Below are positions 18,990 to 25,637 of a DNA stretch of 64,000 nt, piece by piece; the first letter of the stretch is position 1, and the number at the start of each line of letters is the position of its first letter. The notes under the pieces were generated by a model. The model ran no database searches. It saw only the letters and a list, made by a program, of their open reading frames with translations, and was not told where the DNA came from. A program made the position numbers and the translations under genes. The DNA is taken from assembly GCA_016839745.1 (NCBI GenBank), contig JAEOTS010000157.1, positions 1 to 64,000 of the forward strand, written 5' to 3'. Source of the stretch: Promethearchaeota archaeon (GTDB taxonomy: Archaea; Asgardarchaeota; Lokiarchaeia; Sigyniarchaeales; SOKP01).

Positions 18990-19658
18990 ATGAAATATTT
19001 CTTGGATAGTGCTAAAATAGATGAGATTAAGTATGCCCTGGTAAAATGGAAAATAGATGGAGTTACTTCCAACCCAAAACATATTAAGAGTTCAGGCAAG
19101 CCCTTTTTCACAGTTATAAAAGAATTTGCGGAGGAATTTAAAGACATGGATTTCCCGATCTCTGTTGAGATTGATCCTCACCTAGAAGACGCGAAAGATA
19201 TGATTAAGATGGCAACTGAGATTGCAGGTATATCTAAAAATTTCGTGATCAAAATTCCATGCACAGAACAAGGGCTAGTTGCTACTAAAAACCTAGTTGA
19301 GGAAGGTATAAAAGTAAATGTAACTTTAGTGTTTACAACATCACAAGCTATTCAAGTAGGGCGATTAGGGGCGAAATATTGCTCTCCATTTGTCGGATGG
19401 CAAGAAAGTGTTGGAGTAGATTGTTATGGTTTAATTAGCGATATAAAAACAGTTTACCAGAATTACGACTTCGAAACCGAAATAATAGTTGCCGCAGTTA
19501 GATCTGCGAAGCAAATCGTTGATGCCGCGTTAATTGGAGCTGATATAGTTACTGCCGGATTCGAGGTCTATAAGGATAGTTTTTATCATCCTTTTACTGA
19601 TAAGGGATTAAAGATTTTTCAAGATGCTTGGGATGATACCGAGTTAGGCTCTCTATAA
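18990..19658 (+). CDS. TalC/FSA-type transaldolase; candidate 6-deoxy-6-sulfofructose transaldolase
   Basis: MKYFLDSAKIDEI...DGVTSNP...KNFVIKIPCTEQG (Schiff-base Lys)...VNVTLVFTTSQA...SPFVGWQE...AAVRSAKQIVDAALIGADIVT. Confidence 0.9.
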   Translation: MKYFLDSAKIDEIKYALVKWKIDGVTSNPKHIKSSGKPFFTVIKEFAEEFKDMDFPISVEIDPHLEDAKDMIKMATEIAGISKNFVIKIPCTEQGLVATKNLVEEGIKVNVTLVFTTSQAIQVGRLGAKYCSPFVGWQESVGVDCYGLISDIKTVYQNYDFETEIIVAAVRSAKQIVDAALIGADIVTAGFEVYKDSFYHPFTDKGLKIFQDAWDDTELGSL

Positions 19659-19672
19659 AATGGTGAATATTT

Positions 19673-20989
19673 TTGAAAGAAAAAATTAAAGTTGGAGTTG
19701 TTTGTATAGCAAGAAAGACTTTTGATTATAATGCCGCAGGAGAAATTTTTAAAGATATTCAATCAAATTTAAAAAAAATTGAAACTATCGAATGGGTAAT
19801 CAACACAGAATTAATAATTGAAATTAAGGATGCTCAAGCAACAGCTCAGGATTTGAAATCAAAAAATATTGATGGATTAGTTTGCATTAGCGGAACTTTT
19901 GCATTAGGACACTTGATTTTAGAATTAAATAAAGTACTTCAAAAGCCAATTTTACTGTGGGGTTTAGAGGAATTACCATACGACGGAGGAAAAATTCGTC
20001 TTAACTCGGTATGCGGAATAAATTTAAACTCAAGTAATTTGTATAAAGCAGGAGTAAAAAACTATCATGTTATAATTGGAGACCAAATAGACGAAGATTG
20101 GTTAGATGCGTTAAGAATTATAAAAGCTTTCGCAACAAAACATATTGGGATAATAGGTTACAGAGCTAAGGGGTTTTTTAATTTAGATATTGATGAATTA
20201 GATTTATATAAAGAACTTGGTCTTCTCATTGATCACTACGAATTAAATGAAATTTATAATTTTGATGTTGATGCAGATAAAGTTAAAGAAGGAATTGAAC
20301 AAATAAAGAAAATTTTTGATGTTTCAGCTATTTCTGAACAACAATTAGGTAAGGTTGCAGAACTTACAATTAAGTTTACTGAATTTATGGAAAGTAATCA
20401 ATTAGATGCTTTAGCTATTAGATGTTGGCCTGAATTTGCCGCTGATTTTGGTATTGCTCCATGTGCTGCAATGTCAATATTACAAGCTGAAGGTAAAATA
20501 TTAACGTGTGAAGGGGATATACTCGGGTGTTTATCTGTGGTTGCACATTCTGCAATTGGAGCAGAAACACCTTATTTAGCGGATTTTTCTCAAGTAGATT
20601 TTAAGGAGAGTTTCGCTTTATTATGGCATTGTGGAGTAGCTCCTTGTAATCTCTGGGATGGAAATTGTAATCGATCTTTGGAACCCTATTTTGCAGGAGG
20701 AAAAGGAGTGACCGCTGATTTTGTCATGAAATCTGGACAGGTCTCATTTTTAAGAATTGATTACGCTCCTAGAGAGTATCGTCTCTTTTTGCAGAAGGGA
20801 ATTATAATTCCGATGGAAAAAGAATTGAAAGGTACTTATGCTAAAGTAGTTTTTGAAGATCATGTACGGGATGTTTTGAAGAAGATAATTGATAATGGAA
20901 TAGCTCATCACTTATCTGTTGTATATGATGATTATATCCGACCATTAGAAATATTCGCAAAGATTAAAGGATGGGATGTAATTCAATAA
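19673..20989 (+). CDS. L-fucose/L-arabinose isomerase family protein; candidate sulfoquinovose isomerase
   Basis: RCWPEF, SILQAEGKILTCEGDILG, LLWHCGVAP; TTG start with GGTGA SD. Confidence 0.85.
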   Translation: MKEKIKVGVVCIARKTFDYNAAGEIFKDIQSNLKKIETIEWVINTELIIEIKDAQATAQDLKSKNIDGLVCISGTFALGHLILELNKVLQKPILLWGLEELPYDGGKIRLNSVCGINLNSSNLYKAGVKNYHVIIGDQIDEDWLDALRIIKAFATKHIGIIGYRAKGFFNLDIDELDLYKELGLLIDHYELNEIYNFDVDADKVKEGIEQIKKIFDVSAISEQQLGKVAELTIKFTEFMESNQLDALAIRCWPEFAADFGIAPCAAMSILQAEGKILTCEGDILGCLSVVAHSAIGAETPYLADFSQVDFKESFALLWHCGVAPCNLWDGNCNRSLEPYFAGGKGVTADFVMKSGQVSFLRIDYAPREYRLFLQKGIIIPMEKELKGTYAKVVFEDHVRDVLKKIIDNGIAHHLSVVYDDYIRPLEIFAKIKGWDVIQ

Positions 20990-24304: not shown

Positions 24305-24422
24305 TAAGTTTTTAACAATTCAAAGAACAAAACCAAATATAATACTTTTTTTTCTCTTAAACATTTTTCTATCCAAATATTTTATTTTACTACTACGAAT
24401 CTGAGGATCAAGGCAAAAGATA

Positions 24423-25637
24423 GTGACTGAAGATAGGGTGCAAGTTTATGCATATCGTTGGTTTCTTTTAATTGTTTTTATGTTAGGAAATTTATCATTG
24501 CAGATTTTGTGGATCTCTTATGCGACGGTAACTTTAGAAGCGGCTAACTACTATAATGTAGGTGAATTTGAGATTCTTTTTTTATCGACGATTTTTATGA
24601 TTGTCTATATCCCTGTTTCGTTTTTTGCGACTTGGTTTATCAACAAATTTGGTTTCAGGATAGGTGTTGGATTAGGAGCTATGATTAATGGAGTTTTTGG
24701 GTTCCTAAGAGTTTTAGCTGGACCAAATTATCTTTTAGTTCTATTCATTCAAATCATGATATCTGTAAGCCAGCCGTTTTTCCTAAACAGTGTTTCATTA
24801 TTATCCGCAAATTGGTTTCCCGAATCGGAACGCAATACAGCAACTGGTCTTTCAGTAATCTCTCAACTTTTAGGTATTGCTCTTGGTATGGTTTTAACCC
24901 CAATTATAGTTATAACCTTCAATCTTGAAGTAATGTTACTAATTTATGGATTATATTCGTTAATTATTGGAATACTTTTCGTAATAATAGCTCGGGATAA
25001 ACCGCCCACATCACCATCAATCACGGTTAAAAAAGAGCGTACTGAGTTAAAAGGTGGTTTAAAAATGCTCTTACTTAATAAACAGTTCGGGATTATAATT
25101 ATTATATTTTTTGTAGGTCTTGGAGCATTTAATATGGTATCAACTTATATTGAGCTTATTGTTGTTCCCAGAGGTTTAAAAGCTATCGAAGTCGGGAATC
25201 TTGGGGGATTATTGATTTTGGGTGGGATAATAGGAGCTGTATTGATGTCAACCTTAGCAGATAAATTGAGAAAAAGGGCATTGTTAATAAAAATCTCGCT
25301 ACTAGTTGCCGTTACTTCTTTTTTCGTCATATCATTTGCGAGTACTACAGTTATGCTGTATATTTTCGGATTTCTATTAGGGTTCGGCTTATTATCTGTT
25401 GGTCCTGTTTTATTAGAATATGCCGTTGACATTACTGTGCCTGTTCCGGAAGCAAGTTCCAACGGGATGTTAATGGTGGTAGGTTCGATTAGTGGGATAT
25501 TGTTCATTTTGGGATTTGAAGGATTCACTACTCCATCCGGAGATTATTTTCCGGCATTGATGGTATTATCTGTCCTTTCGCTAATCTCATTTCTTCTCTC
25601 CTTTATTCTAAAAGAAGTTAAAAAAGAAGGAATTTAA
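24423..25637 (+). CDS. MFS transporter
   Basis: 12-TM type protein, FLVCR/MFS-like; GTG start; same strand as the sulfosugar candidate cluster. Confidence 0.85.
   Translation: MTEDRVQVYAYRWFLLIVFMLGNLSLQILWISYATVTLEAANYYNVGEFEILFLSTIFMIVYIPVSFFATWFINKFGFRIGVGLGAMINGVFGFLRVLAGPNYLLVLFIQIMISVSQPFFLNSVSLLSANWFPESERNTATGLSVISQLLGIALGMVLTPIIVITFNLEVMLLIYGLYSLIIGILFVIIARDKPPTSPSITVKKERTELKGGLKMLLLNKQFGIIIIIFFVGLGAFNMVSTYIELIVVPRGLKAIEVGNLGGLLILGGIIGAVLMSTLADKLRKRALLIKISLLVAVTSFFVISFASTTVMLYIFGFLLGFGLLSVGPVLLEYAVDITVPVPEASSNGMLMVVGSISGILFILGFEGFTTPSGDYFPALMVLSVLSLISFLLSFILKEVKKEGI

What the first reader, a model, noticed from the sequence alone, without database searches (positions are those of the whole stretch)
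18990..25637. Candidate archaeal sulfoquinovose (sulfosugar) catabolic operon of the transaldolase type
Five consecutive plus-strand genes: TalC-type transaldolase, FucI/AraI-family isomerase, GH31 with sulfoquinovosidase features, fused sulfopyruvate decarboxylase and an MFS transporter. Established knowledge: the bacterial sulfo-transaldolase route uses a sulfoquinovosidase, an SQ isomerase and a 6-deoxy-6-sulfofructose transaldolase, giving sulfolactaldehyde plus a C3 transfer to an acceptor. Inference: this is that route in an archaeon, with a C3-sulfonate tail running through sulfopyruvate rather than simple DHPS/sulfolactate excretion. I saw no sulfolactaldehyde or sulfolactate dehydrogenase in the cluster, so those steps would have to be encoded elsewhere. 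I cannot verify novelty without a search.
Basis: partly seen in the sequence, partly recalled or inferred. Interest (0 to 1): 0.9.

Follow-up and report, generated by a model that had tools for sequence, protein, structure and literature searches.

The report
Asgard archaeal sulfoquinovose-cleaving gene cassette

Summary
The five genes are real and at the stated coordinates. Three of them, SF-transaldolase (18990-19658), SftI/SqvD-like isomerase (19673-20989) and GH31 sulfoquinovosidase (21008-22990), form a tight cassette (gaps 14 and 18 nt). It recurs in Lokiarchaeia: TAL and ISO co-occur in 17 of 61 genomes searched, and the block is contiguous in seven. The TAL is 62% identical to the solved Bacillus SF-transaldolase, against 40% to an Asgard housekeeping TalC. 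The GH31 has SQase fold, score and catalytic residues, with R283 and W286 conserved, but Phe replaces YihQ Tyr508. The isomerase is the weakest assignment (SftI model 227 bits, cut-off 700), though its AraI/FucI fold is clear.

The sulfopyruvate-decarboxylase-like gene and the MFS gene are not part of the cassette: in five related genomes they sit, in whole or part, in a methylmalonyl-CoA mutase/MeaB neighbourhood without it, and Xsc is absent from all 61 genomes. The proposed sulfopyruvate tail is therefore unsupported.

Six related cassettes contain a YihU-like reductase with Lys at YihU's Arg123 column; one contains an aldehyde:ferredoxin oxidoreductase. The window genome has close relatives of neither. 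A 2026 review states that no SQ-degradation pathway is characterised in archaea. No enzyme activity is shown here.

The parts
18990..19658 (+). 6-deoxy-6-sulfofructose transaldolase (SftT/SqvA type), Schiff-base Lys88
   Evidence: Best PDB hits 8bc3/8bc4/8bc2 SF-TAL at 296-300 bits vs 167 for the next TalC; 62% identity to BmSF-TAL vs 40% to an Asgard canonical TalC, sharing SF-TAL-specific NP[KR]H, GW[KQ]E and R[NS][GA]KQ in place of NPT, GRLD and RHPIH
19673..20989 (+). sulfoquinovose isomerase (SftI/SqvD-like, AraI/FucI fold), TTG start
   Evidence: Only NCBIfam hit is NF048012 SftI, 227 bits vs cut-off 700; AF2 model pLDDT 87, TM 0.87 to L-arabinose isomerases; 40-41% identical to Thermotogae isomerases encoded next to SQases; invariant E280, D304, H319, H412/H413
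21008..22990 (+). GH31 sulfoquinovosidase, cytoplasmic (no obvious signal peptide): nucleophile D387, acid/base D454, sulfonate-site R283 and W286, F490 in place of YihQ Y508
   Evidence: PRK10426 800 bits vs cut-off 553; the six best PDB sequences are all SQases (515-663 bits, next 141); AF2 model TM 0.96 to BmSQase 8r56; residues
23102..24304 (+). fused sulfopyruvate/phosphonopyruvate decarboxylase-like TPP enzyme; neighbour, not part of the cassette; substrate unknown
   Evidence: Below cut-off for TIGR03297, TIGR03845 and TIGR03846; orthologues in the mcm-MFS-MeaB neighbourhood without the cassette
24423..25637 (+). MFS transporter; neighbour belonging to the mcm/MeaB region; substrate unknown
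   Evidence: Orthologues 79-88% next to SPDC and MeaB in G015, G006 and G009 without the cassette; 80% directly upstream of TAL in G010
16920..18838 (+). methylmalonyl-CoA mutase large subunit (3' part) and B12 subunit, upstream context
   Evidence: PF01642 and PF02310
25771..26748 (+). MeaB GTPase, downstream context
   Evidence: PF03308
27929..29344 (+). GPH-family (MelB-like) symporter; a possible importer, but conserved in relatives without a nearby cassette
   Evidence: PF13347; GPH-family genes recur near cassettes in L027, L033, L041, L052, L055, L056, L066 and L125

Best explanation
The TAL-ISO-GH31 block is an archaeal sulfo-transaldolase (sulfo-TAL) cassette of Lokiarchaeia. Inferred route: sulfoquinovosyl glycerol or another SQ glycoside enters the cell, the GH31 SQase releases sulfoquinovose, the AraI/FucI-fold isomerase makes 6-deoxy-6-sulfofructose, and the transaldolase moves the dihydroxyacetone unit to glyceraldehyde-3-phosphate, giving fructose-6-phosphate plus 3-sulfolactaldehyde (SLA). 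The SLA step is not in the window cassette and differs between lineages: a YihU-like reductase (giving DHPS) in six cassettes, and possibly a ferredoxin-linked aldehyde oxidoreductase (giving sulfolactate) in others. The decarboxylase-like and MFS genes downstream belong to a separate mcm/MeaB neighbourhood next to which the cassette landed. Shown: sequence, fold, residues and synteny. Inferred: substrates, transport and products.
For: TAL nearest to crystallised SF-TALs with SF-TAL-specific motifs. GH31: SQase model above cut-off, six best PDB hits all SQases, SQase catalytic residues plus R and W, AF2 TM 0.96 to BmSQase, Loki SQases a supported clade within the SQases. ISO: SftI model is its only NCBIfam hit, AraI/FucI fold, next to SQase in Thermotogae too. 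Tight spacing. Conserved synteny and co-occurrence in Lokiarchaeia. Six relatives have, between TAL and ISO, a beta-hydroxyacid dehydrogenase (best PDB hit of the one tested: the E. coli SLA reductase) with Lys where YihU has Arg123; the generic Loki paralogue and tartronate semialdehyde reductase have Gly there.
Against: No activity has been measured. ISO scores far below the SftI cut-off. YihQ Tyr508, Tyr in all five SQase sequences aligned from the PDB, is Phe here. No cassette-borne SLA enzyme or dedicated transporter in the window. The Firmicutes accessory SftX (DUF4867) was not found (control uninformative). Some Lokis have TAL and ISO with the SQase elsewhere or of a different (R301Q) clade, so the GH31 is interchangeable.
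Confidence: 0.83

Rival explanations
1. One reading: all five genes are one operon, and SLA is oxidised to sulfolactate and sulfopyruvate, decarboxylated by the fused enzyme to sulfoacetaldehyde, and further used or excreted, with the MFS protein as transporter.
For: Same strand, consecutive. The fused enzyme scores to sulfopyruvate decarboxylase alpha and beta models (116 and 174 bits). Weak co-occurrence of its orthologues with the cassette (p = 0.03, not phylogeny-corrected). Two Ldh_2-type dehydrogenases (the ComC family) and one aldehyde dehydrogenase exist elsewhere in the genome.
Against: The decarboxylase and MFS genes sit in the mcm/MeaB neighbourhood without the cassette in G015, G006 and G003 (part of it in G009 and G008); 15 cassette-bearing genomes lack an orthologue; gaps of 111 and 118 nt. 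Model scores are below cut-off and it is a Lokiarchaeia-dominated family about 31% identical to named relatives. Xsc over cut-off in 0 of 61 genomes. The Ldh_2 pair is also in relatives without the cassette.
Confidence: 0.1
2. The three enzymes process a non-sulfonated sugar (an ordinary alpha-glucoside or 6-deoxyhexose), and the SQ resemblance is phylogenetic only.
For: ISO is far below the SftI cut-off; Tyr508 is Phe; one Loki clade has R301Q.
Against: R283, W286 and the SF-TAL motifs are kept; both TAL and GH31 are nearest to B. megaterium-group sulfoglycolysis enzymes; a basic residue appears in the linked reductase at the YihU Arg123 column.
Confidence: 0.06
3. Bacterial contamination of the bin or a chimeric contig.
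For: The TAL is 62% identical to a Bacillus protein; the genome is a draft with 5.8% estimated contamination.
Against: The cassette is flanked by genes syntenic with other Loki genomes, recurs in many independent Loki assemblies, and Loki SQases form their own supported clade.
Confidence: 0.01

Closest known systems
Sulfo-TAL (SFT) pathway of Priestia/Bacillus megaterium, B. aryabhattai and Eubacterium rectale (SftT/SqvA, SftI/SqvD, SftG)
   Same: Same three core enzymes; TAL and GH31 have the B. megaterium-group enzymes as closest solved relatives
   Different: Archaeal host; divergent isomerase; no SLA enzyme, exporter or SftX in the window cassette
Sulfo-TAL-like clusters of Thermotogae (Pseudothermotoga), reported as variants in PMC9594981
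   Same: ISO and GH31 adjacent, ISO 40-41% identical (L044, L045); TAL and GH31 in L039
   Different: Loki TAL is closer to Bacillus SF-TAL (62%) than to L039 (48%)
E. coli YihQ and YihU (sulfo-EMP)
   Same: SQase family; the YihU-type SLA reductase resembles the enzyme in six Loki relatives
   Different: The window cassette uses a transaldolase and an AraI/FucI-fold isomerase instead of YihS, YihV and YihT, and has no reductase
ComDE sulfopyruvate decarboxylase and phosphonopyruvate decarboxylases
   Same: Fused TPP enzyme of the same superfamily
   Different: About 31% identical, below curated cut-offs, mcm neighbourhood; not part of the cassette

Membership tests
GH31 sulfoquinovosidase | SQase-family sequence above curated cut-off | tested here: met
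   PRK10426 (YihQ model) 800.2 bits vs 553; six best PDB sequences all SQases
GH31 sulfoquinovosidase | Catalytic Asp pair (YihQ D405, D472) | tested here: met
   D387 and D454
GH31 sulfoquinovosidase | Sulfonate recognition by R301 and W304 | tested here: met
   R283 and W286; the role of these residues is from my own knowledge of the YihQ work
GH31 sulfoquinovosidase | Tyr508 (water-mediated sulfonate contact) | tested here: not met
   F490 in the window and its clade; Tyr in all SQase sequences aligned from the PDB. Effect of Phe unknown; a secondary contact, not catalytic
GH31 sulfoquinovosidase | Hydrolysis of SQ glycosides | not testable with these tools
   needs protein
6-deoxy-6-sulfofructose transaldolase | Nearest to SF-TALs rather than TalC/FSA, with Schiff-base Lys | tested here: met
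   300 vs 167 bits; 62% vs 40% identity, shared motifs, Lys88
Sulfoquinovose isomerase SftI/SqvD | NF048012 equivalog cut-off (700 bits) | tested here: not met
   227 bits; Thermotogae isomerases next to SQases score 206-249. Related and probably isofunctional, not a strict member
Sulfoquinovose isomerase SftI/SqvD | AraI/FucI fold | tested here: met
   TM 0.87 to L-arabinose isomerases
Sulfo-TAL pathway | SQase, SQ isomerase and SF-TAL encoded together | tested here: met
Sulfo-TAL pathway | SLA reductase (YihU) or SLA dehydrogenase (SlaB/SftD) in the cluster | tested here: not met
   None in the window; YihU-like reductase in six related cassettes; one generic lactaldehyde-type ALDH elsewhere in the genome
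Sulfo-TAL pathway | SftX (DUF4867) | tested here: inconclusive
   0 of 61 genomes, but the control genomes did not ring either
Sulfopyruvate decarboxylase ComDE | TIGR03845 and TIGR03846 cut-offs | tested here: not met
   116 vs 148 and 174 vs 221.5 bits

The most novel reading that the evidence does not exclude
Asgard archaea run a sulfo-TAL pathway whose SLA step is lineage-specific. Some lineages oxidise SLA with an aldehyde:ferredoxin oxidoreductase, making reduced ferredoxin instead of NADH or DHPS. A conserved Fd-AOR-LarA(group 22) unit lies inside the cassette of G025, 14.5 kb from it in the window's sister species G010, and elsewhere in G030; AOR and ferredoxin homologues also lie near an SQase in a spirochaete (L032).
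Probability: 0.25. Interest if true: 0.82.

Novelty: new member of a known kind. Interest (0 to 1): 0.72.

Why it matters
[quoted passage not shown] If the assignment holds, Lokiarchaeia take carbon from sulfolipid head groups and release C3-sulfonates that could feed sulfite-respiring bacteria, which is a concrete carbon source and a syntrophic link for these archaea. The cassette is small enough to be tested directly with purified enzymes.

Tried and rejected
1) Five-gene operon: rejected, because orthologues of the decarboxylase and MFS genes sit in the mcm/MeaB region without the cassette. 2) Sulfoacetaldehyde route through Xsc: no hit over cut-off in 61 genomes; the lower hits look like generic TPP enzymes, since all 14 control genomes give such hits too. 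3) Ldh_2 dehydrogenases as a dedicated sulfolactate dehydrogenase: a pair occurs in most of the genus whether or not the cassette is present. 4) A YihU orthologue in the window genome: only a TSAR-type paralogue with the SGG loop, present in most relatives. 5) Close relative of the G025 AOR in the window genome: none, best 39%. 6) SftX/DUF4867: not found, control uninformative. 7) PLSDB plasmids as a source of bacterial SF-TAL comparators: nothing above about 43% for TAL or 29% for ISO among the listed rows. 8) The papers with Y508 and SF-TAL mutant data are not in the library, so the effect of Tyr to Phe is unknown.

Full report
Observation. The five ORFs are present as described. The window lies on a 65.7-kb contig of a 3.53-Mb draft genome (89% complete, 5.8% contamination). 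Its relatives are Lokiarchaeia: a same-genus genome (G010) holds the contig that is JABXKD010000001.1, Candidatus Lokiarchaeota archaeon Hel_238_bin105.

Transaldolase. The best PDB matches are the SF-transaldolases 8bc3, 8bc4 and 8bc2 (296-300 bits), followed by ordinary TalC at 167 bits. Identity is 62% to the Bacillus SF-TAL and 40% to an Asgard canonical TalC. The Loki and Bacillus SF-TALs share NP[KR]H, GW[KQ]E and R[NS][GA]KQ where canonical TalC has NPT, GRLD and RHPIH. The Schiff-base lysine is Lys88, one residue off Lys89 of SqvA as given in PMC12890257 because Bacillus has one extra residue.

Sulfoquinovosidase. NCBIfam PRK10426 (YihQ) scores 800 bits against a cut-off of 553. The six best PDB sequences are all SQases at 515-663 bits, and the next hit is YicI at 141. 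An AF2 model (pLDDT 88) matches BmSQase 8r56 with TM 0.96, YihQ 0.95-0.96 and E. rectale SftG 0.94; the first non-SQase is 0.73. YihQ Q288, R301, W304, D405 and D472 are kept as Q270, R283, W286, D387 and D454. Tyr508 is Phe490, while it is Tyr in all SQase sequences aligned from the PDB. Loki SQases form one supported clade of 21 rows (99/97) within the SQases, and the window sits in an 8-row subclade (100/100). A second Loki subclade, including same-genus G022 and G021, carries R301Q although its ISO and, where found, TAL are mostly 65-80% identical to the window's. The GH31 slot has therefore probably been exchanged or duplicated between cassettes.

Isomerase. This is the least certain assignment. 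NF048012 (SftI) is the only NCBIfam hit, at 227 bits against a cut-off of 700. The AF2 model (pLDDT 87) has TM 0.87 to L-arabinose isomerases and about 0.8 to L-fucose isomerases. E280, D304, H319, H412 and H413 are invariant in 24 sequences including Thermotogae isomerases encoded next to SQases. Those Thermotogae proteins also score only 206-249 bits, so the NCBIfam model probably covers one branch of a wider family.

Unit and synteny. TAL-ISO and ISO-GH31 gaps are 14 and 18 nt; the flanking gaps are 151 and 111 nt. TAL-ISO-GH31 is contiguous in G000, G010, G051, G009, G008, G006 and G035. G022 has TAL-reductase-ISO-GH31, and G030 has the three genes with one opposite-strand ORF between TAL and ISO. 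ISO-GH31 is adjacent in L026 and G021. In other genomes TAL and ISO are together and the SQase is elsewhere. Over 61 genomes TAL and ISO co-occur in 17, with one TAL-only and two ISO-only (Fisher p = 5.5e-12). These p-values ignore shared ancestry.

Genes 4 and 5 are neighbours, not members. In G015 and G006 the order is MCM_N, MCM_C, a LarA-family gene, an HpaB-family gene on the other strand, the decarboxylase-like gene, MFS, MeaB, with no TAL, ISO or GH31. G003 shows the same up to its contig end. G009 has the decarboxylase-like gene, MFS and MeaB, and G008 the decarboxylase-like gene and MeaB. In G006, G008 and G009 the SQ cassette is at another locus. In the window the cassette lies between MCM_C and the decarboxylase-like gene; in the sister species G010 it lies between MFS and MeaB and the decarboxylase-like gene is absent. 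The decarboxylase family is Lokiarchaeia-dominated and about 31% identical to named relatives, below cut-off for sulfopyruvate and phosphonopyruvate models. Xsc is over cut-off in none of 61 genomes. Its weak co-occurrence with the cassette (p = 0.03) leaves a small residual chance of a functional link.

What happens to sulfolactaldehyde. Six related cassettes (L052, L119, L121, L122, L123, L124) have a beta-hydroxyacid dehydrogenase between TAL and ISO. For L119 the best PDB hit is the E. coli SLA reductase 6sm7 (112.3 bits, practically tied with tartronate semialdehyde reductase at 111.7). At the column of YihU Arg123 all six have Lys, while TSAR and the generic Loki paralogue have Gly. That Arg123 contacts the sulfonate is from my own knowledge of the YihU structure. 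G025 has instead TAL, a membrane protein that looks like a permease, ferredoxin, AOR, LarA group 22, an AEC transporter and ISO. The Fd-AOR-LarA22 unit recurs 14.5 kb from the cassette in G010 and elsewhere in G030, and AOR and ferredoxin homologues (52% and 42%) lie within 8 kb of a spirochaetal SQase. Ferredoxin-linked SLA oxidation is thus a lead, not a result. The window genome has neither enzyme; its candidates are a single lactaldehyde-type ALDH on another contig, unrelated AORs and a TSAR-type paralogue.

Novelty. [quoted passage not shown] Searches combining sulfoquinovose with Asgard or Lokiarchaea found no such report in the open library; subscription journals and preprints were not searched. 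PMC9594981 mentions variant sulfo-TAL clusters in Thermotogae and Chloroflexi only. I file this as a new, archaeal, member of the sulfo-TAL kind.

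Noticed in passing
window 16718-17010: The methylmalonyl-CoA mutase large-subunit gene changes frame between about 16981 and 17010 relative to the intact 561-aa G006 orthologue; a real frameshift or an assembly error.
   Followed up: partly
L125:8969-12566; L166:5879-9429; L167:4952-8601; L032:2712-5223: Conserved Fd-AOR-LarA(group 22) unit inside or near SQ cassettes in Lokiarchaeia; AOR and ferredoxin homologues near a spirochaetal SQase.
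   Followed up: partly
L027:14841, L041:15979, L052:6211, L066:17672, L125:4996, L128:7720: An S1-type sulfatase with a CSPSR motif (60% or more identical to the L027 copy) recurs within about 10 kb of the TAL or cassette in six Loki genomes, though SQ is a sulfonate and not a sulfate ester.
   Followed up: no
L033:10004, L052:8842, L053:9031, L055:8944, L056:13700: A second Loki SQase subclade has Gln at the YihQ R301 position, as do many spirochaetal and Thermotogae GH31 proteins; whether these cleave SQ glycosides is unknown.
   Followed up: no
L055:13153-19901: Several GPH-family transporter genes (three complete, one running off the locus, one fragment) lie next to the cassette.
   Followed up: no
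L129 and L130, MCM to MeaB region: Loki mcm neighbourhood with LarA-family (malate-racemase-like) and HpaB-family genes, a decarboxylase-like TPP gene and MFS: a carbon-metabolism cluster of unknown role.
   Followed up: partly
P0180, P0199, P0219: SF-TAL proteins 76-77% identical to the window's are labelled Hermodarchaeota and Hodarchaeota in public records: transfer or mis-binning.
   Followed up: no
L044:120-785: A LarA C-terminal-domain gene lies close upstream of ISO and SQase in a Thermotogae contig, a second link of LarA-type isomerases to SQ genes.
   Followed up: no
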